Positions 4,311 to 15,034 of a DNA stretch of 41,722 nucleotides are shown piece by piece. The stretch spans positions 1 to 41,722 of the forward strand of contig JAOPYX010000003.1 in assembly GCA_025964535.1 (NCBI GenBank), written 5' to 3'. The notes beneath the pieces were generated by a model. It was not told where the DNA came from. It was given only the letters and a program-made list of their open reading frames with translations, and ran no database searches. The DNA comes from Actinomycetes bacterium (GTDB lineage Bacteria; Actinomycetota; Thermoleophilia; Gaiellales; Gaiellaceae). Position 1 is the first letter of the stretch. The number at the start of each line of letters is the position of its first letter. A program made the translations under genes and the position numbers.

Positions 4311-7169
4311 ATGGCTTCCCGACCCGAGGTGGACGGACTCAACGCGGGCTACGCGGCGCTCGTGCTCGAGCAATACCTCGACAATCCTTCGGCCGTCTCC
4401 GCCGAATGGCGCGCGCACTTCGAGAACAGCGATCCGGAAGAGCTGCTTGCGATCCAGCCGGGCCTCGCGCGGCTGCTCGAGCATTTCGAGTCGGAGGGCG
4501 GCAACGGGCACGTCGTCGCGGCTCCGCCGGCGCCCGTCGCCGTCGCCGCTCCCGCAGCAGCGTCGGTCGACGACGAGCTCCTGGGTGGCGTCGCCGCCGC
4601 CATGGCCCTCGTCAAGGCGTTCCGCATGCACGGGCATCTCGCCGCGCACCTCGACCCGCTCGGCTCCGAGCCCTCGGGCGACCCTGCGCTCGAGCCGGAG
4701 CGGCTGATCCCGAAGCTGACGCCCGAGCTCCAGGCGCGCATCCCCGCGTCGATGCTCCGCCTCTATGTCGAGGGCGAGACGCTCGCCGACGCGCTGCCGC
4801 GGCTGCGCGAGGTGTACTGCGGCACGATCGCCTACGAGATCGAGCACATCTCCGACCACGAGGAGCGAGTCTGGCTCCGGCAGGCGATCGAGTCCGGCCG
4901 CTACCGCCAGCCGCTCACCGACGAAGAGCGCGTCCGGCTGCTCGCGCGGCTGAGCCAGGTCGAGGGGATGGAGCAATATCTCCGCCGCGCGTTCCTCGGC
5001 CAGAAGCAGTTCTCGATCGAGGGCCTCGACGTGATGGTGCCGATGCTCGACGAGTCGATCGAATTGGCCGCCGAGGCGGGCGCGCACGAGGTCGTGATCG
5101 GCATGGCCCATCGCGGACGCCTCAACGTGCTCGCCCATGTCGTCGGCAGGCCGTACGACGTGATCCTGCGCGAGTTCGAAGGCGAGCGCACGATCGAGGC
5201 GGTCGTCGCGAGCGACGAAGGCGGGACCGGGGACGTGAAATACCACCTCGGCGCCGAGGGCACGCGGGCAACGCACGCGGGGGAGATCACGGTCACCCTG
5301 GCATCGAATCCGAGCCACCTCGAGGCCGTCGATCCGGTGGTCGAGGGTCGCGCGCGCGCCGAGCAGACCGATCGCTCCACGCGCGAGGGGTACCACGACC
5401 CGAGCGTCGCGCTTCCCGTCCTCATCCACGGCGACGCATCGTTCGCCGGCCAGGGCGAGGTTGCGGAGACTCTCAACCTGCAGGGCCTCTCCGGCTATTC
5501 GACCGGCGGCACGCTGCACGTGATCGGCAACAACCAGGTCGGCTTCACGACCGATCCCTCCGACGGGCGCTCGACGCGCTATTCGAGCGACCTCGCGAAG
5601 GGCTTCGACGTCCCGATCATCCATGTCAACGCCGACGACCCCGAAACGGCGATGTCGGCGATCCGGCTCGCGCTGGCCTACCGTCGCCGGTTCGGCCACG
5701 ACGTCGTCGTCGACCTCGTCGGCTATCGCCGTCACGGCCACAACGAGCAGGACGAGGCGGCGTACACGCAGCCGTTGCTCGCCGCGGCGATCGCTGCACA
5801 TCCGACCGTGCGCGAGCAGTACGCGGCGCGCCTGGTCGAGACGCGCGTCGTCACGCAGGAGCAGGCGGACGAGCTCTTCACCGACGTGCAGACGCAGCTG
5901 CGTGCGGCGCACGAGGCCTTGAAGGCGACGTTCACCGAGGCGCCGCCGCGGCCCGCGGCCGACGGACGCACTCCCGCGGGGACTGCGAGCTCCGTCGTCA
6001 CCGCGGTGTCGGCCGACCGCCTGGAGTTGCTGAACGAAGAGTTGCTCCGTGTGCCCGAGTGGTTCACGCCACATCCGAAGCTCTGGAAGCAACTCGAGCG
6101 GCGCCGAACCGCGCTCGAGGAAGGCGGCATCGACTGGGGTCAGGCAGAGGCGCTTGCGTTCGCGTCGCTGCTCGTCGACGGCATCCCCGTCCGGATCACC
6201 GGGCAGGACACCGAGCGCGGGACGTTCTCGCACCGGCACGCCGTCCTGCACGACGTGAATACCGGCGCGACATTCACGCCGATGCAGCATCTCGACGAGG
6301 CCGCAGCGGCGTTCGAGATCCACAACTCGCCGTTGTCCGAGTACGCCTGCGTCGGCTTCGAGTACGGCTACTCCGCCGCCGCGCCGGAGGCACTCGTGCT
6401 GTGGGAGGCGCAGTTCGGCGACTTCGTGAACGGCGCTCAGATCATCATCGACCAGTTCATGTCGGCCGGCCTCTCGAAGTGGAGCGAGACCTCGCGCCTG
6501 ACGCTGCTGCTGCCCCACGGGTACGAGGGGAACGGCCCCGAGCACTCGAGCGCGCGGCTCGAACGGTTCCTCCAGCTTGCCGCGCAGGAGAACATCCGCA
6601 TCGCGAACTGCACGACCTCCGCGCAGTACTTCCATCTCGTGCGACGCCAAGCGCTCGACGCGACCGCGCGCCCTCTCGTCGTGATGACGCCGAAGGGCCT
6701 GCTGCGACTCAAGCAGGCGGGCTCGACGCTCGCGGATCTCTCGGAAGGCGACTTCCAGCCGTTGATCGACGACGCACAGGCCGATCGCGATCAGGTCACC
6801 CGTCTCGTGCTCTGCTCCGGGAAGATCTACTACGACATCGTCGGGCACGAGGATCGCGCGGCCGCGACACGCGTCGCCGTCGCGCGCCTCGAGCAGCTCT
6901 ATCCGTTCCCGGTCGAGCAGGCCGCAGCGTTGCTGCGGGGCTACCCGAACCTGCGGGAGGTCGTCTGGGCGCAGGAAGAGCCGCAGAACATGGGCGCCTG
7001 GCGCGCGATCCGGCATCGGCTCGAGGAAGCGAAGCCGGACGGCGTTCCGCTCCTCTACGTCGGGCGCCCGTGGCGGGCGAGCCCGAGTGAGGGGTATCCG
7101 ACGGCGCACCTGCGTGAGCAGGACCGGATCGTGCGCGCCGCCCTCGCTCCCTCGGCTCTCTCGGCCTAG
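4311..7169 (+). CDS. sucA: 2-oxoglutarate dehydrogenase E1 component
   Basis: 952-aa ThDP-dependent E1 subunit that decarboxylates 2-oxoglutarate in the TCA cycle and passes the succinyl group to the E2 lipoyl domain. The N-terminus (GYAALVLEQYLDNPSAVSAE) is the E1 docking segment, followed by an Ala/Pro-rich linker at 65-85. The catalytic part has the substrate-loop motif MAHRGRLNVL, the ThDP-binding stretch from HGDASFAGQGEVAE to IGNNQVGFTT, and the transketolase-type pyrimidine domain (SHRHAVLHD, FEYGYS, QDFVNGAQ-like QFGDFVNGAQ). Length and order match E. coli SucA (about 930 aa). The roughly 350-residue acyltransferase domain fused to mycobacterial Kgd is absent, so a separate E2 must exist elsewhere. 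AAAGGGG about 8 nt upstream of the ATG is a good ribosome site. The S66 peptidase starts 5 nt downstream. Confidence 0.95.
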   Translation: MASRPEVDGLNAGYAALVLEQYLDNPSAVSAEWRAHFENSDPEELLAIQPGLARLLEHFESEGGNGHVVAAPPAPVAVAAPAAASVDDELLGGVAAAMALVKAFRMHGHLAAHLDPLGSEPSGDPALEPERLIPKLTPELQARIPASMLRLYVEGETLADALPRLREVYCGTIAYEIEHISDHEERVWLRQAIESGRYRQPLTDEERVRLLARLSQVEGMEQYLRRAFLGQKQFSIEGLDVMVPMLDESIELAAEAGAHEVVIGMAHRGRLNVLAHVVGRPYDVILREFEGERTIEAVVASDEGGTGDVKYHLGAEGTRATHAGEITVTLASNPSHLEAVDPVVEGRARAEQTDRSTREGYHDPSVALPVLIHGDASFAGQGEVAETLNLQGLSGYSTGGTLHVIGNNQVGFTTDPSDGRSTRYSSDLAKGFDVPIIHVNADDPETAMSAIRLALAYRRRFGHDVVVDLVGYRRHGHNEQDEAAYTQPLLAAAIAAHPTVREQYAARLVETRVVTQEQADELFTDVQTQLRAAHEALKATFTEAPPRPAADGRTPAGTASSVVTAVSADRLELLNEELLRVPEWFTPHPKLWKQLERRRTALEEGGIDWGQAEALAFASLLVDGIPVRITGQDTERGTFSHRHAVLHDVNTGATFTPMQHLDEAAAAFEIHNSPLSEYACVGFEYGYSAAAPEALVLWEAQFGDFVNGAQIIIDQFMSAGLSKWSETSRLTLLLPHGYEGNGPEHSSARLERFLQLAAQENIRIANCTTSAQYFHLVRRQALDATARPLVVMTPKGLLRLKQAGSTLADLSEGDFQPLIDDAQADRDQVTRLVLCSGKIYYDIVGHEDRAAATRVAVARLEQLYPFPVEQAAALLRGYPNLREVVWAQEEPQNMGAWRAIRHRLEEAKPDGVPLLYVGRPWRASPSEGYPTAHLREQDRIVRAALAPSALSA

Positions 7170-9269: not shown

Positions 9270-11054
9270 ATGAGGGGCGTCGGGGTGGGAAGCTTCAAGT
9301 TCAAGCTGGTGGTCTACTTTCTGCTGCTCTCGCTCTTGCCGATTGCAGCGGCCTTCTGGGGATTCGCTTCGGTCGCCGGGCAGAGCGCGACGCGGCGCGT
9401 CGACTCGCGGCTCCAGGCCGGGCTGCGCGCATCGCTTGCGGGCTACCAGGAAAAGGTGGACGCCGCGCAGGCGAGTGCCGCGAGGCTCGCGCGCAACCGC
9501 GCGTTCCAGGTCGAGCTTCAGCGCCGGGATGTCGCAGCGCTGACAGCGGCGTTGGGCAAGGCGGCCAACGTGTACGTCGTCGCATCAGGGCACGCACTGC
9601 ACGTGGGGCGGCGCCCCGGCTTGGCGGCGCAGCGTCAGGTGGCCGTCTTCACGCCGACCGGCCTCGCGGGAACCGTCACAGCGTTCGTCCCGTTCGACGC
9701 TGCACTCGTGAAGTCCGTCCGTGCGCGATCGAGCCTTGCAGGTGTCGACGCGCTCGTGCTCGTGCACGGCTCGCGCATCGTCGCCTCGTCGCCCAACGTG
9801 GCCGGCCGGCTGCCGCTCGGCGTCGGGCAGACGCAGACGGTGACCGTGTCCGGCACGCGCTACCGGGCGCTCGTCGGGCCGCCGGTCGGGGAGATTTCCG
9901 GCGTTCGCTTCGCCGTCCTCAGCCCGCAGTCGCTGATCGACTCCGCCAACGCGAGCTCGCGCAACCGCCTGCTCCTGGGACTGCTCGCGTCGCTCGCGCT
10001 CGTCTCGCTCGTCGCCTTCTTCGAGGGGCGCTCGATCGTGCGCACCCTGCGCGGCCTCGGCGAGGCGGCCCACGCCATCGCACGCGGCAGGCTGTCGGAG
10101 CGCGTGCCGGTGCGCGGCAAGGACGAGTTCGCGCTGCTCGGCGTCGCCTTCAACGACATGGCGAACCAGCTCCAGGCGCGGCTCGACGATCTCGAGGACG
10201 AGCGCGGCCGCCTGCGCGACGCGATCACGCGCTTCGGCGAGGCGCTCTCGGCGTCGCACGATGTCGAGCAGTTGCTGCGGGTCATCGTGGAGGCGGCGGT
10301 CGAGGCGACGGGAGCGACCAGCGCGAGCCTCGCGGCCGGCAGCGACGAAGTCGTCGTAAACGGCGACCCGACCGCGACAGGAGAGCGTCTCGAGCTTCCG
10401 ATCACCGCCGGCCACGAGACGTTCGGAACGCTCACGCTGGTCGGCGCCCACTTCACCGCGGAGCAGCGGATGACCGCTTCGTCGCTCGCGTCGCATGCAG
10501 CCATCGCGCTCGAGAACGCGCGGCTCCATCGCATCGTCGAGCGCCAGGCGCTGGTCGACGGGCTGACCGGCATCGCGAACCGCCGCCAGTGCGAGGAAGC
10601 GCTCATCTCCGAGATCGCGCGCGCCGACCGCCTCGCGACTCCGCTCACCCTCGTGCTCGCCGACCTCGACGACTTCAAGGCGATCAACGACGTCCATGGC
10701 CACGCGACCGGCGACGACGTGCTGCGCGAGTTCGCCTCCGTCCTCCGCGCGACCGTCCGCGACTCCGACCTGGCCGGGAGATGGGGCGGGGAGGAGTTCC
10801 TGCTCCTGCTCCCCGGTGCCGACGGAGTGGGCGGAGCCCAGCTGGCCGATCGCGTCCGCGCGTCGCTCAGCGAGCGGTCGTTCGCCGGTCACGCCGGAGT
10901 GGTGGTCTCGGTCACGTGCAGCTTCGGCGTGGCCCAGCACACCCCCGGCCTGAACGAGCGTGAGCTCTTCGCCGCGGCCGACCGGGCGCTCTACCGGGCC
11001 AAGCGGGAGGGCAAGAACCGGGTGGAGATGGACACACCCGTCCGGAGCTTTTAG
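9270..11054 (+). CDS. Membrane diguanylate cyclase (sensor-HAMP-GAF-GGDEF)
   Basis: 594-aa membrane sensor that makes cyclic di-GMP from two GTP. The order is: transmembrane helix 13-33 (LVVYFLLLSLLPIAAAFWGF), an extracytoplasmic sensor of about 190 residues (Cache-like, family not certain), a second helix at about 232-250 (RLLLGLLASLALVSLVAFF), HAMP (about 253-308), GAF (about 318-425), then GGDEF. The active-site motif is GGEEF at 506-510, and the product-inhibition I-site RDSD lies at 497-500, the correct five residues upstream. DGLTGIANRR and DLDDFKAIND supply the metal- and nucleotide-binding residues. All catalytic features are intact. The ATG at 9270 has only a weak GAGG upstream, so a slightly different start is possible. 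Confidence 0.92.
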   Translation: MRGVGVGSFKFKLVVYFLLLSLLPIAAAFWGFASVAGQSATRRVDSRLQAGLRASLAGYQEKVDAAQASAARLARNRAFQVELQRRDVAALTAALGKAANVYVVASGHALHVGRRPGLAAQRQVAVFTPTGLAGTVTAFVPFDAALVKSVRARSSLAGVDALVLVHGSRIVASSPNVAGRLPLGVGQTQTVTVSGTRYRALVGPPVGEISGVRFAVLSPQSLIDSANASSRNRLLLGLLASLALVSLVAFFEGRSIVRTLRGLGEAAHAIARGRLSERVPVRGKDEFALLGVAFNDMANQLQARLDDLEDERGRLRDAITRFGEALSASHDVEQLLRVIVEAAVEATGATSASLAAGSDEVVVNGDPTATGERLELPITAGHETFGTLTLVGAHFTAEQRMTASSLASHAAIALENARLHRIVERQALVDGLTGIANRRQCEEALISEIARADRLATPLTLVLADLDDFKAINDVHGHATGDDVLREFASVLRATVRDSDLAGRWGGEEFLLLLPGADGVGGAQLADRVRASLSERSFAGHAGVVVSVTCSFGVAQHTPGLNERELFAAADRALYRAKREGKNRVEMDTPVRSF

Positions 11055-11155: not shown

Positions 11156-11491
11156 ATGCCGGTAGAGACACCGTCGTTGTTCGCCGAGGTGATCAAGGAT
11201 CACCTTGCGTTGAAGGAGCAGAACTCCACGCTCGACCGGCACATGCCGATCGACCGCTACAAGAACGAAGACCCGTTCCAGAACCACCCGCTGTTCAAGA
11301 CCGAGGAGCAGGCGCGCCTCGAGGAGACGATGGACGGCGTGCCGGCCTTCGCCGCCGCCCCGGCCGCCGACACGAGCTTGCCCTGGCCCGGCGAGGAGAC
11401 CGCGGAGAACGCGGCACCTCCCGCGGCTGAGATCGAGGACTCAGGCTTCTGGGCCGTCGACCGCGCCCGGGACTTCGACTGGGGCGACTAG
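11156..11491 (+). CDS. Conserved-looking 111-aa soluble protein, function unknown
   Basis: Unrecognised protein with two parts. Residues 1-62 look ordered and charged (SLFAEVIKDHLALKEQNSTL, then PIDRYKNEDPFQNHPLFKTE and EQARLEETMDG). Residues 63-111 are an Ala/Pro/Glu-rich disordered tail ending in an aromatic-acidic patch (GFWAVDRARDFDWGD) that looks like a short docking motif. There is no signal peptide or membrane segment. Expression signals are unusually good: a TACAAT -10-like hexamer, a near-perfect GGGAGGA Shine-Dalgarno 7-8 nt before the ATG, and two intrinsic terminators in a row directly after the stop. That suggests a highly expressed single-gene transcript. The function cannot be inferred; an adaptor or partner-binding protein is one guess. 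Confidence 0.75.
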   Translation: MPVETPSLFAEVIKDHLALKEQNSTLDRHMPIDRYKNEDPFQNHPLFKTEEQARLEETMDGVPAFAAAPAADTSLPWPGEETAENAAPPAAEIEDSGFWAVDRARDFDWGD

Positions 11492-11540: not shown

Positions 11541-11575
11541 GGGCGGCGGCCATCCGGTCGCCGCCCTTTTTGTTT
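11541..11575 (+). terminator. Second tandem intrinsic terminator
   Basis: Perfect 8-bp GC stem, GGGCGGCG (11541-11548)/CGCCGCCC (11559-11566), a 10-nt loop, then TTTTTGTTTT. The T-run is on the plus strand only, so it serves the 111-aa gene rather than the convergent glycosylase gene. Confidence 0.9.
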
Positions 11576-11611: not shown

Positions 11612-12229
11612 TCACAGCACCGCCGCGACCTTGCGGAGGTCGTCGACGAAACGGGCGAACTCCTGGCGCCGCGCGTCGCCGTCCCGCTGGCGCAGGATCG
11701 CGCTCGGGTGGATCGTCGCCGTCACGAGCTCGGCGAGATCGGAGTCGATCCATTCGCCCCGCTGCTTCGTGACGCGGAACTGCTTGCCGAGGAGCGCCTG
11801 GCCGGCGACCGCGCCGAGGCAGACGAGCACCCGCGGACGCACGACCGCGAGCTCGGCCTCGAGCCAGGGCCTGCAGGCCATCGTCTCCGACCACGTCGGC
11901 TTCTGATGGATCCGCCGCTTGCCACGCCCCACCCATTTGAAGTGCTTCACGGCGTTCGTCACGTAGGTCGTGTCGCGGTCGATGCCGGCCTCCGCGAGTG
12001 CCTCGTCGAGCAGTCGGCCCGCGGGCCCGACGAAGGGACGCCCCTCGATGTCCTCCCGGTCGCCGGGCTGCTCCCCGACGAGCATCACCTCGGCGTTCGG
12101 GCTCCCCTCGCCGAAGACCGTCTGGGTCCCTGTCTCCCACAGCGGGCAGGCTCTGCAGTGCGCCGCGGCCTCGCGCAGGCGCGACAGCGTCGGGCGCTCG
12201 GGGACGAGCGGGGCGGCTGATGCAGCCAT
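11612..12229 (-). CDS. udgX: UdgX-type uracil-DNA glycosylase (uracil-DNA cross-linking)
   Basis: 205-aa member of the family 4-like uracil-DNA glycosylases. Four cysteines (Cys25, Cys28, Cys119, Cys137) are placed as iron-sulfur cluster ligands. Motif A is GEQPG (52-56) and motif B is HPS (174-176). The distinctive loop KRRIH lies at 104-108, so His108 falls where UdgX carries its nucleophilic histidine. In characterised UdgX proteins that His attacks the sugar after uracil release and the enzyme stays covalently bound to DNA, instead of leaving a free abasic site. GEQPG in place of the family-4 GEAPG also fits UdgX. I chose the ATG at 12229 (AAGGG upstream, usual length); an in-frame ATG at 12295 would add 22 residues. 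The gene is divergent from the GGDEF/HD-GYP gene. Confidence 0.92.
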   Translation of the reverse strand: MAASAAPLVPERPTLSRLREAAAHCRACPLWETGTQTVFGEGSPNAEVMLVGEQPGDREDIEGRPFVGPAGRLLDEALAEAGIDRDTTYVTNAVKHFKWVGRGKRRIHQKPTWSETMACRPWLEAELAVVRPRVLVCLGAVAGQALLGKQFRVTKQRGEWIDSDLAELVTATIHPSAILRQRDGDARRQEFARFVDDLRKVAAVL

Positions 12230-12379
12230 CTTCCGGCCCTTACCCACGCGCGGATCCGTCAACTCGTACCTCCGCTGGGGGATGGGAATCCGCATGAAAT
12301 ATGGCGATGCTTGACGTATTCGCTTCGATTCCGAGGAGCACGACCTGCGGCAAGTGGCAACCCATACGAAGGGGCACGC

Positions 12380-15034
12380 GTGGTAGCGCGCCCTGAGTCG
12401 ACCCTCCGGCTGCTGCCGGGGCAGTTCGACGTGCCCACGGACGCAGTGGTCGAGTCGTATCGGCGGCTCGCCGACGTCTTCCACGAGGTGCTCGCCGAGC
12501 AGAGCCTCGACGCGCTGCTCGTACGCATCGCCGACACGCTCGCGGATCTGATCCCGCACGACACCCTCACCATCTACGAGGCCGACGAGGCGCAGGGCCT
12601 GCTCGTCCCGATGCTCGTCCGCGACGAGTACGCCGACGAGATCATGAGGACGCGCATCGGCTTCGACGAGGGCGTGACGGGCTGGGCGGCCCGCAATCGC
12701 GAGGCCGTGCTCGTCAACCAGGCGCACCTGGATCCGCGCGTCGGCGTCGTGCCGGGGACCCCGGTCGACCCCGAGGCGCTGATCTCGATCCCGCTCATCG
12801 CCCGCGCCCAGATCAAGGGCGTGCTCAACATCTATCGCGTCGGCGAGCACGCCGTGTTCAGCGACGAGGATCTCGAGCTCGCGACGCGGTTCGGAGACGC
12901 CGCCGCGCTCGCGCTCGACAACGCGCAGATTCGCGCGCGACTCGAGCATCAGGCGCAGACAGACTCGCTCACCGGGCTCTTCAACCACCGCGCGTTCCAC
13001 GAGCGGCTGCTGACCGCGCTGCAGGAAGCGAGCCGGACGCACAGTCCGATCGCCGTTCTCATGCTCGACCTCGACAACTTCAAGCGGGTCAACGACGTGC
13101 ACGGGCACGGCGTGGGGGACGAAGTGCTGCAGCTGCTCGCCGAGATGCTGCGCTCGTGCGTCCGACCGGAAGACGTCGTCTGCCGCCTTGGCGGCGAGGA
13201 GTTCGGCGTCATCATGAGCGCGTGCGACGGCGCCGACGCGGTTCGTGTCGCGGAGCGCATCGTCTCGCACGCCGGGGAGCTGGACATTCCCGCGGTCGGC
13301 TCCGTCACCGTGTCTGTCGGTCTTGCGCGCGGCCCCGAGCACGCGATGAACCCGCGAGAGCTCGCCGCCTGCGCCGAGGCGGCCATGATGACCGCAAAGG
13401 CGCAGGGCAAGAACCGCATCGTTCTCTACGCCGACGAGGCGACGGAGCGCCCGAACGAGCCGGCGAAGGTACGCGACGTGCGCTCGATCGCGCACCTGAA
13501 GATGCTGCAGAGCCTGAGCGGAAAGCTCAACCGGCTGAACGACGTGCGCCAGATCGGCGACGAGATCGCAGACGAGCTCCGCTCGCTGATCGATTACCAC
13601 AACTGCCGTGTGTCGGTGGTCGACGGCGACGACATCGTCCCCGTCGCGTTCCGTGGCGAGCTTGCCGCCGAGACGTCTGCCCTGCCGCTCGAGCTGCTAC
13701 GCGCAAAGGTGGGCGTCGGCATCACCGGCCGCTGTGCGCAGACCGGCGAGTCGCTCCTGATCGGCGACGCAGCGAACTGCGAGTTCGGCAGCCTCATTCC
13801 CGGGACGCCCATGATCGAGGAGTCGTTGCTCGCGGTTCCGCTGCGCTACGGCTCGCGCGTCGTCGGCGTCATCGTCGTGTCGAAGCTCGGGCTCGACCAG
13901 TTCGACGAGGACGACGTGCGCCTCCTCGAGGTGCTCGGCGGGCACGCCGCGGTTGCAGTCGAGAACGCGAGTCTCTACGAGTCGGCGCGACGCGAGGCGG
14001 AGAGTGCGACCTCGCTGCTGGAGTTCGGCCGGGAGCTCGCCACCGCGGCAAGCCTCGACGACATCCTCGAGCGGGTCGTGAAGTTGAGCGCGGACCTGCT
14101 CGGTTCGCCTCGCACCTCGATCTGGCTCGAGAACTCCGAGGGTCAGCTCGCACCGCGCAAGCTGCACGGCTACACACCCGACGACCGCGCGCGTGTCGAG
14201 CTGCGCCGCTTCGACGTCTCCGACGCGCGCCAAAGGCTCGAGGCAGGGCCCGAGCCCTTCGTGCTCGGACCGGCGCAGATATCGCGCATCACCACCGACC
14301 GGCTCGACGTCGACGTGTCGTACGCCATCGCTCCGATCGAGGTCGGCGAGGGCGTCGGCTATATCGTCGCGGTGCTGCCCACCGAGGAGTTCAGCGAGCG
14401 AGAGCTGCGACTGCTCGGCGGGCTCGCGCACCAGGCCAAGCTCGCGCTCGCGAACGCGAGCAACTACGAAGGGCTCGAGCAGGCCTTCGTCTCGACCGTG
14501 GAGGCGCTCGCAAACGCGCTCGAGGCCAATGACGAGTACACGTCGCGGCACGCACGCTGGATCACCGATCTGTCGTTGCGTGTCGGCGGAGAGCTCGGCC
14601 TCGGCGAGGGCGCCTTGAAGCACCTGGAGCTCGCCGCGCTCCTCCACGACATCGGCAAGATCGGCATCCCGAGCGACATCCTCGCGAAGCCGGGTCGGCT
14701 GACTGCCGAGGAGCGGCGCGTGATCGAGACGCACCCCGCGCTCGGAGAAGGGATCATCGCGCCGATCGACCGGCTCCAAGCCGTGAGGCCGATCGTGCGC
14801 CACTGCCACGAGCGCTGGGACGGTGGCGGCTATCCCGACGGTCTCGCCGGCGACGCCATCCCGCTCGAGTCGCGCATCATCTTCGTCTGCGACGCGTACC
14901 ACGCGATGACGACCGATCGCCCATACCGGAAGCAGCTCAGCCACAGCGAAGCCGTGCGTCGCCTCCGGGACGGTGCAGGCTCGCAGTTCGATGCGCGCGT
15001 CGTCGAGATCTGCCTCGGTTTGCTCAGCCTCTAA
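12380..15034 (+). CDS. Dual-domain c-di-GMP protein: GAF-GGDEF-GAF-GAF-HD-GYP
   Basis: 884-aa soluble protein with both c-di-GMP synthesis and breakdown modules. The order is: GAF-1 (about 20-185), GGDEF (about 190-355), GAF-2 (about 365-535), GAF-3 (about 540-700), HD-GYP (about 705-884). The cyclase motif GGEEF (271-275) and inhibitory I-site RPED (262-265, five residues upstream) are intact. The phosphodiesterase has HDIGK with His756-Asp757 and the GYP signature GGGYPDG (815-821, Tyr818-Pro819). No transmembrane helix is seen, so the GAF domains presumably sense cytosolic ligands. The start is taken at GTG 12380 because GAAGGGG lies 6 nt before it; an upstream TTG at 12311 would add 23 residues without a ribosome site. 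It ends in a 4-nt tail-to-tail overlap with the ABC exporter. Confidence 0.93.
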   Translation: MVARPESTLRLLPGQFDVPTDAVVESYRRLADVFHEVLAEQSLDALLVRIADTLADLIPHDTLTIYEADEAQGLLVPMLVRDEYADEIMRTRIGFDEGVTGWAARNREAVLVNQAHLDPRVGVVPGTPVDPEALISIPLIARAQIKGVLNIYRVGEHAVFSDEDLELATRFGDAAALALDNAQIRARLEHQAQTDSLTGLFNHRAFHERLLTALQEASRTHSPIAVLMLDLDNFKRVNDVHGHGVGDEVLQLLAEMLRSCVRPEDVVCRLGGEEFGVIMSACDGADAVRVAERIVSHAGELDIPAVGSVTVSVGLARGPEHAMNPRELAACAEAAMMTAKAQGKNRIVLYADEATERPNEPAKVRDVRSIAHLKMLQSLSGKLNRLNDVRQIGDEIADELRSLIDYHNCRVSVVDGDDIVPVAFRGELAAETSALPLELLRAKVGVGITGRCAQTGESLLIGDAANCEFGSLIPGTPMIEESLLAVPLRYGSRVVGVIVVSKLGLDQFDEDDVRLLEVLGGHAAVAVENASLYESARREAESATSLLEFGRELATAASLDDILERVVKLSADLLGSPRTSIWLENSEGQLAPRKLHGYTPDDRARVELRRFDVSDARQRLEAGPEPFVLGPAQISRITTDRLDVDVSYAIAPIEVGEGVGYIVAVLPTEEFSERELRLLGGLAHQAKLALANASNYEGLEQAFVSTVEALANALEANDEYTSRHARWITDLSLRVGGELGLGEGALKHLELAALLHDIGKIGIPSDILAKPGRLTAEERRVIETHPALGEGIIAPIDRLQAVRPIVRHCHERWDGGGYPDGLAGDAIPLESRIIFVCDAYHAMTTDRPYRKQLSHSEAVRRLRDGAGSQFDARVVEICLGLLSL

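What the first reader, a model, noticed from the sequence alone, without database searches (positions are those of the whole stretch)
11612..12229. UdgX with intact KRRIH loop: suicide-type uracil sensor
The GEQPG motif, KRRIH loop with His108, HPS motif and four cysteines match UdgX, whose histidine forms a covalent bond to the deoxyribose after uracil excision. A cell carrying it traps uracil sites as protein-DNA cross-links, needing special repair. It is divergent from a c-di-GMP enzyme, not in a repair cluster.
Basis: partly seen in the sequence, partly recalled or inferred. Interest (0 to 1): 0.6.

Follow-up and report, generated by a model that had tools for sequence, protein, structure and literature searches.

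The report
Ordinary UdgX-type cross-linking uracil-DNA glycosylase
The gene encodes a standard UdgX, an enzyme predicted to cut uracil out of DNA and stay covalently stuck to the spot; it is a new member of a known family, sitting in a chromosomal slot where some sister species have lost it.

Summary
Window 11612-12229 (minus strand) encodes a complete 205-aa protein with every sequence hallmark of UdgX: TIGR03914 at 284 bits (cut-off 190), the Mycobacterium smegmatis UdgX structures as best PDB match (1.6e-62), GEQPG, an intact KRRIH loop with His108 (= Msm His109), HPSAILR, and every other residue whose mutation abolishes activity in Msm UdgX. Covalent capture of the abasic site is the likely chemistry, by homology; nothing here shows it directly. 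One detail is wrong: 'four cysteines' is not diagnostic. Msm UdgX has three, and the fourth (Cys137) is variable. The gene is a new member of a known kind, with many relatives in soil Thermoleophilia (about 74% identity) and other phyla. Its position opposite a GGDEF/HD-GYP gene is conserved in ten related loci. The slot is empty in at least four sister genomes, and in a fifth it holds a decayed UdgX remnant, so the c-di-GMP neighbour looks like an old address, not a demonstrated partner. RecA and AddAB-type genes, dUTPase and other UDG-fold proteins are in the genome; the radical-SAM partner of fused UdgX is not found. Side lead: in four other phyla UdgX lies beside ImuA-ImuB-DnaE2 mutagenesis genes.

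The parts
11612..12229 (-). udgX gene, 205 aa
   Evidence: ORF; TIGR03914 284 bits; PDB Msm UdgX 1.6e-62
12062..12076 (-). motif A GEQPG (residues 52-56; Glu53 and Gln54 = Msm E52, Q53)
   Evidence: alignment
11906..11920 (-). R-loop KRRIH (residues 104-108; His108 = Msm H109, the covalent nucleophile)
   Evidence: alignment; function from PMC10359453
11690..11710 (-). motif B HPSAILR (residues 174-180; His174, Arg180 = Msm H178, R184)
   Evidence: alignment
12146..12157 (-). CxxC (Cys25, Cys28), presumed 4Fe-4S ligands, conserved in all relatives that cover them
   Evidence: ligand role inferred from the family
11873..11875 (-). Cys119 (Msm C120), invariant, presumed 4Fe-4S ligand
11819..11821 (-). 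Cys137, the fourth cysteine; not conserved (Leu in Msm UdgX)
12311..15034 (+). divergent GAF-GGDEF-GAF-HD-GYP c-di-GMP gene (true start probably GTG at 12380)
   Evidence: start inferred from the sequence and relatives' starts
11156..11491 (+). small conserved ORF of unknown function (111 aa), convergent with udgX
   Evidence: 53 of 61 genomes searched have it; no NCBIfam or Pfam match
9270..11054 (+). HAMP-GGDEF diguanylate cyclase, outer border of the udgX slot
11541..11566 (+). terminator-like hairpin with T-run between the small ORF and the end of udgX
   Evidence: 1 found, 0.4 expected

Best explanation
This is a stand-alone, intact UdgX. By homology it finds uracil in single- or double-stranded DNA, flips it out and cleaves the glycosidic bond using Asn92 and His174. 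Glu53 then activates His108, which attacks C1' of the deoxyribose, leaving the protein covalently capping the abasic site (single turnover). The cap would block AP-endonuclease incision and be removed later by replication-coupled or recombination (RecA/AddAB) and proteolytic repair. The motifs and catalytic residues are shown here by sequence. The chemistry is inferred from Msm UdgX, and the downstream repair from literature proposals. Within Thermoleophilia it is an accessory gene in a fixed chromosomal slot and has been lost in at least one lineage.
For: TIGR03914 284 bits against cut-off 190, well above the family-4 model (150 bits). Closest PDB sequences are Msm UdgX, wild type and mutants, 1.6e-62. 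All residues essential in Msm UdgX (D59, F65, N91, K94, R107, H178), the nucleophile H109, and E52, Q53, D56 and R184 are present; the R107/H109 pair is invariant in 99 of 99 UdgX-like relatives and absent from the nine family-4 UDGs aligned (PMC10776899; PMC10359453). UdgX scores over the cut-off in 20 of 61 genomes, own included. Tree: groups with Thermoleophilia UdgX including those from the same slot, SH-aLRT 88-93, below the tool's own 95 mark. RecA, AddAB-type genes and dUTPase are present.
Against: No biochemistry can be done here. Motif B has Ile where the published consensus has Leu or Val (conservative; very common in relatives). The physiological role of UdgX is largely unknown even in mycobacteria. 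The genome is only 76.6% complete, so absences are weak.
Confidence: 0.9

Rival explanations
1. A conventional, turning-over family-4 UDG (UDGa) that only resembles UdgX.
For: It also passes the family-4 model (150 bits, cut-off 125), and UdgX is thought to have evolved from that family (PMC10359453).
Against: Motif A is GEQPG, not GE(A/G)PG. R106 and H108 are present, whereas the published survey finds Pro/Asn at these positions in family 4 and none of the nine family-4 UDGs aligned has them. TIGR03914 scores 134 bits higher. Related genomes commonly carry a separate family-4 UDG beside UdgX.
Confidence: 0.04
2. UdgX here works with its neighbours as part of a c-di-GMP-controlled DNA-damage or biofilm response: the divergent GGDEF/HD-GYP gene and UdgX are co-regulated.
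For: The head-to-head arrangement is conserved in ten other Thermoleophilia/Actinobacteria loci (L035, L037, L038, L040, L041, L044, L047, L050, L051, L055).
Against: The c-di-GMP genes keep the same arrangement with the slot empty in G005, G008, G010 and G015. Blocks of the intergenic sequence persist in the empty-slot genomes (read by eye), so they look like part of the HD-GYP promoter. UdgX elsewhere has other neighbours.
Confidence: 0.06
3. UdgX is part of anti-phage or plasmid defence against uracil-containing DNA.
For: Patchy distribution; matches on 376 plasmid records.
Against: No defence genes were recognised by eye around it in the annotated or translated neighbourhoods read (no PADLOC scan was run). 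Phage matches are 32-41% identical, in the range of family-4 UDGs rather than UdgX. The gene is a stable chromosomal resident here.
Confidence: 0.03

Closest known systems
Mycobacterium smegmatis UdgX (PDB 6AJO, 6IO9, 6AIL; WP_011726794.1)
   Same: Aligns over nearly full length; GEQPG, KRRIH, HPS..LR, three conserved cysteines, all mutationally essential residues; stand-alone protein
   Different: Extra Cys137; loop region two residues shorter before KRRIH; gene neighbourhood of Msm udgX was not compared
Fused UdgX (radical-SAM-linked type) on Phaeobacter, Caballeronia and Paracoccus plasmids
   Same: UdgX domain, annotated as UdgX family
   Different: Those are about 480 aa proteins beside the radical SAM gene; here stand-alone, and TIGR03916 is absent from all 61 genomes searched
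Family 4 UDG (UDGa), e.g. Thermus thermophilus 1UI0
   Same: Same superfamily; 3e-33
   Different: GE(A/G)PG, no R-loop, no cross-linking
SRAP/HMCES/YedK abasic-site cross-linkers
   Same: Same working principle: protein caps an abasic site covalently (own knowledge)
   Different: Unrelated protein, different chemistry (own knowledge); no SRAP found in this incomplete genome

Membership tests
UdgX | TIGR03914 above curated cut-off | tested here: met
   284.1 bits against 189.95
UdgX | Motif A GEQPG | tested here: met
   residues 52-56
UdgX | R-loop KRRIH with R107 and H109 | tested here: met
   residues 104-108; R and H invariant in 99/99 relatives
UdgX | Motif B HPS(S/A)(L/V)(L/V)R | tested here: met
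   HPSAILR, with one conservative Ile shared by most relatives
UdgX | 4Fe-4S cluster | not testable with these tools
   the three conserved cysteines are present; Msm has no cysteine at Cys137, so its fourth ligand must be something else; His96 is my inference
UdgX | Covalent His-C1' adduct with uracil-DNA | not testable with these tools
   needs an SDS-PAGE cross-linking assay
Family 4 UDG (UDGa) | GE(A/G)PG; Pro/Asn at positions 107/109; no R-loop | tested here: not met
   GEQPG, R106/H108, loop present (rule from PMC10359453)
Radical-SAM-linked UdgX module | TIGR03916 partner gene | tested here: not met
   0 of 61 genomes; own genome 76.6% complete
c-di-GMP-linked repair module | obligate co-occurrence of UdgX with the GGDEF/HD-GYP locus | tested here: not met
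   locus intact without UdgX in G005, G008, G010, G015

The most novel reading that the evidence does not exclude
UdgX is an accessory of SOS mutagenesis: its cap on abasic sites is handled by the ImuA-ImuB-DnaE2 translesion machinery. Nine of 80 UdgX loci in four phyla carry parts or all of that cassette within about 5 kb. In Thermoleophilia, including this window, the gene works without that linkage.
Probability: 0.15. Interest if true: 0.6.

Novelty: new member of a known kind. Interest (0 to 1): 0.27.

Why it matters
It extends a well-studied enzyme to soil Thermoleophilia. The slot with present, decayed and absent UdgX in close relatives is a natural comparison for asking what UdgX is for, which the literature calls largely unknown. 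The side lead, linkage with ImuA-ImuB-DnaE2 in other phyla, gives a testable hypothesis about how UdgX-capped sites are tolerated.

Tried and rejected
Looked for LexA-, alphaproteobacterial SOS- and PafBC-type boxes upstream of udgX in 81 loci: only one chance-like match. Sigma-70 promoter scan of the intergenic region: none. dN/dS against near relatives gave no value: every pair ended in a math error, probably from saturated synonymous sites. Phage search gave only remote UDG matches. Radical-SAM partner: absent. DnaE2 in the own genome: not above cut-off; the Y-family polymerases there match Pol IV models. Three background controls (RecA, Mug, C307 UDG) were taken as the longest open frame, which was the wrong frame, and are disregarded. 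Structure prediction was not run: the sequence match to solved UdgX structures made it unnecessary.

Full report
OBSERVATION. The stated coordinates hold one complete ORF on the minus strand, ATG at 12229 to stop at 11612, 205 aa. It matches NCBIfam TIGR03914 (UdgX family) at 284 bits, cut-off 190, and the family-4 UDG model more weakly at 150 bits. Pfam gives UDG, 2.8e-36. The best solved sequences are M. smegmatis UdgX and its mutants, 1.6e-62, nearly full length. GEQPG, KRRIH with His108, and HPSAILR are all there.

ACTIVE SITE. I aligned the protein with Msm UdgX, 99 UdgX-like relatives (some of them two fetches of the same genome) and nine family-4 UDGs. Every residue reported as essential for Msm UdgX (D59, F65, N91, K94, R107, H178; PMC10776899) and the nucleophile H109 with its activator E52 and helper Q53 (PMC10359453) is conserved in the window protein. 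R107 and H109, which that paper calls the UdgX signature, are invariant in 99 of 99 relatives, while K105, R106 and Q53 vary a little (ARRIH with GETPG in L062, WRRLH with GEIPG in L070). Most of these relatives were fetched with peptide patterns from the window protein itself, so they are biased towards close kin. Cys137 is Leu in Msm, and Cys in 67 of 99. By position I suspect His96 (Msm H95, 99 of 99), which stands near where family 4 has a cysteine, as the fourth ligand; that is inference.

GENOME. The window lies in a 3.19 Mb, 76.6% complete assembly. Its nearest named relatives are Thermoleophilia and Actinobacteria MAGs, mostly from soil-like samples, at 70-76% identity. Other UDG-superfamily proteins in the genome are a Mug-like protein fused to a Nudix domain, a family-4-like divergent protein and a degenerate UDG-fold protein. 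No canonical family-4 UDG was found in this assembly, though most relatives have one; with a quarter of the genome missing this means little. dUTPase is present in all 61 genomes. RecA is present, split over contig ends. No SRAP protein was found.

NEIGHBOURHOOD. UdgX sits between a HAMP-GGDEF gene plus a small unknown ORF on one side and a head-to-head GAF-GGDEF-HD-GYP gene on the other. The same head-to-head arrangement recurs in ten other loci, and the small ORF is visible in eight of them. A terminator-like hairpin separates the small ORF from udgX. In sister genomes G005, G008, G010 and G015 the c-di-GMP genes are in the same order with no UdgX between them. In G006 the slot holds a decayed remnant: fragments matching residues 63-118 (one frame) and 142-167 (another frame), best 39.3 bits without composition correction (29.3 bits with the settings used for the shuffles), against a maximum of 23.1 bits in 500 shuffles made from blocks of two bases. 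That is direct evidence of loss in one lineage. UdgX matches in G003 and G032 are split into two pieces, which may be decay or assembly error. The tree groups the window UdgX with other Thermoleophilia copies, including those in the same slot; many of its forks are weak. The simplest account is an old resident lost several times; the number of losses was not counted on a species tree.

WIDER CONTEXT. Elsewhere UdgX has other settings: in long proteins next to the radical SAM gene on Phaeobacter, Caballeronia and Paracoccus plasmids, and among stress and carbohydrate genes on rhizobial plasmids. TIGR03916 is absent from all 61 genomes searched. In nine of the 80 loci UdgX lies within about 5 kb of ImuA, ImuB and/or DnaE2: five Acidobacteria from one clade, one alphaproteobacterium, one Verrucomicrobiales, two Chloroflexi. 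Pol IV, AddA and AddB queries from the window's genome found none in the same 710 kb of flank; these control sequences come from a distant genome, so they are a rough background only. No paper in the library holds both UdgX and ImuB. This is a lead, not part of this window.

MECHANISM. Shown: an intact UdgX sequence with a complete active site. Inferred from Msm UdgX: uracil excision followed by His108 attack on C1', leaving a covalent cap. Inferred from proposals in the literature: protection of abasic sites and later resolution by RecA-dependent pathways or proteases. Not supported: a signalling 'sensor' role through c-di-GMP.

VERDICT. A correctly recognised, ordinary UdgX: new member of a known kind, interest low to moderate, raised slightly by the natural presence/loss comparison in the slot.

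Noticed in passing
L052, L053, L054, L060, L071, L079, L092, L078, L066: UdgX lies within about 5 kb of ImuA/ImuB/DnaE2 mutasome genes in Acidobacteria, Alphaproteobacteria, Verrucomicrobia and Chloroflexi.
   Followed up: partly
L147, about 4400-4570 (G006 slot): Decayed UdgX remnant between the small ORF and the HD-GYP gene of a sister genome.
   Followed up: yes
window 11156-11491: Small conserved ORF without Pfam or NCBIfam match, present in 53 of 61 genomes with or without UdgX.
   Followed up: partly
L145 4220-4330 (G005 slot): The empty slot holds copies of a palindromic repeat, GGTGTCAGACACC/GGTGTCTGACACC, absent from the window.
   Followed up: no
L054, L071, L091: Acidobacterial UdgX is followed by a large Lhr-like/DEXH helicase gene; DUF72 genes lie near UdgX in 12 loci.
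   Followed up: no
L004 1324-1965 (G000:C328): Degenerate UDG-fold protein lacking the usual motif A, in this genome; similar weak hits are frequent in relatives.
   Followed up: no
L023 (G045): A 45% identical UdgX-like protein with GEQPG, VRRIH and an inserted loop, but Arg in place of the otherwise invariant His95.
   Followed up: no
L003 1312-2448 (G000:C58): Mug-type mismatch glycosylase fused to a Nudix domain.
   Followed up: no
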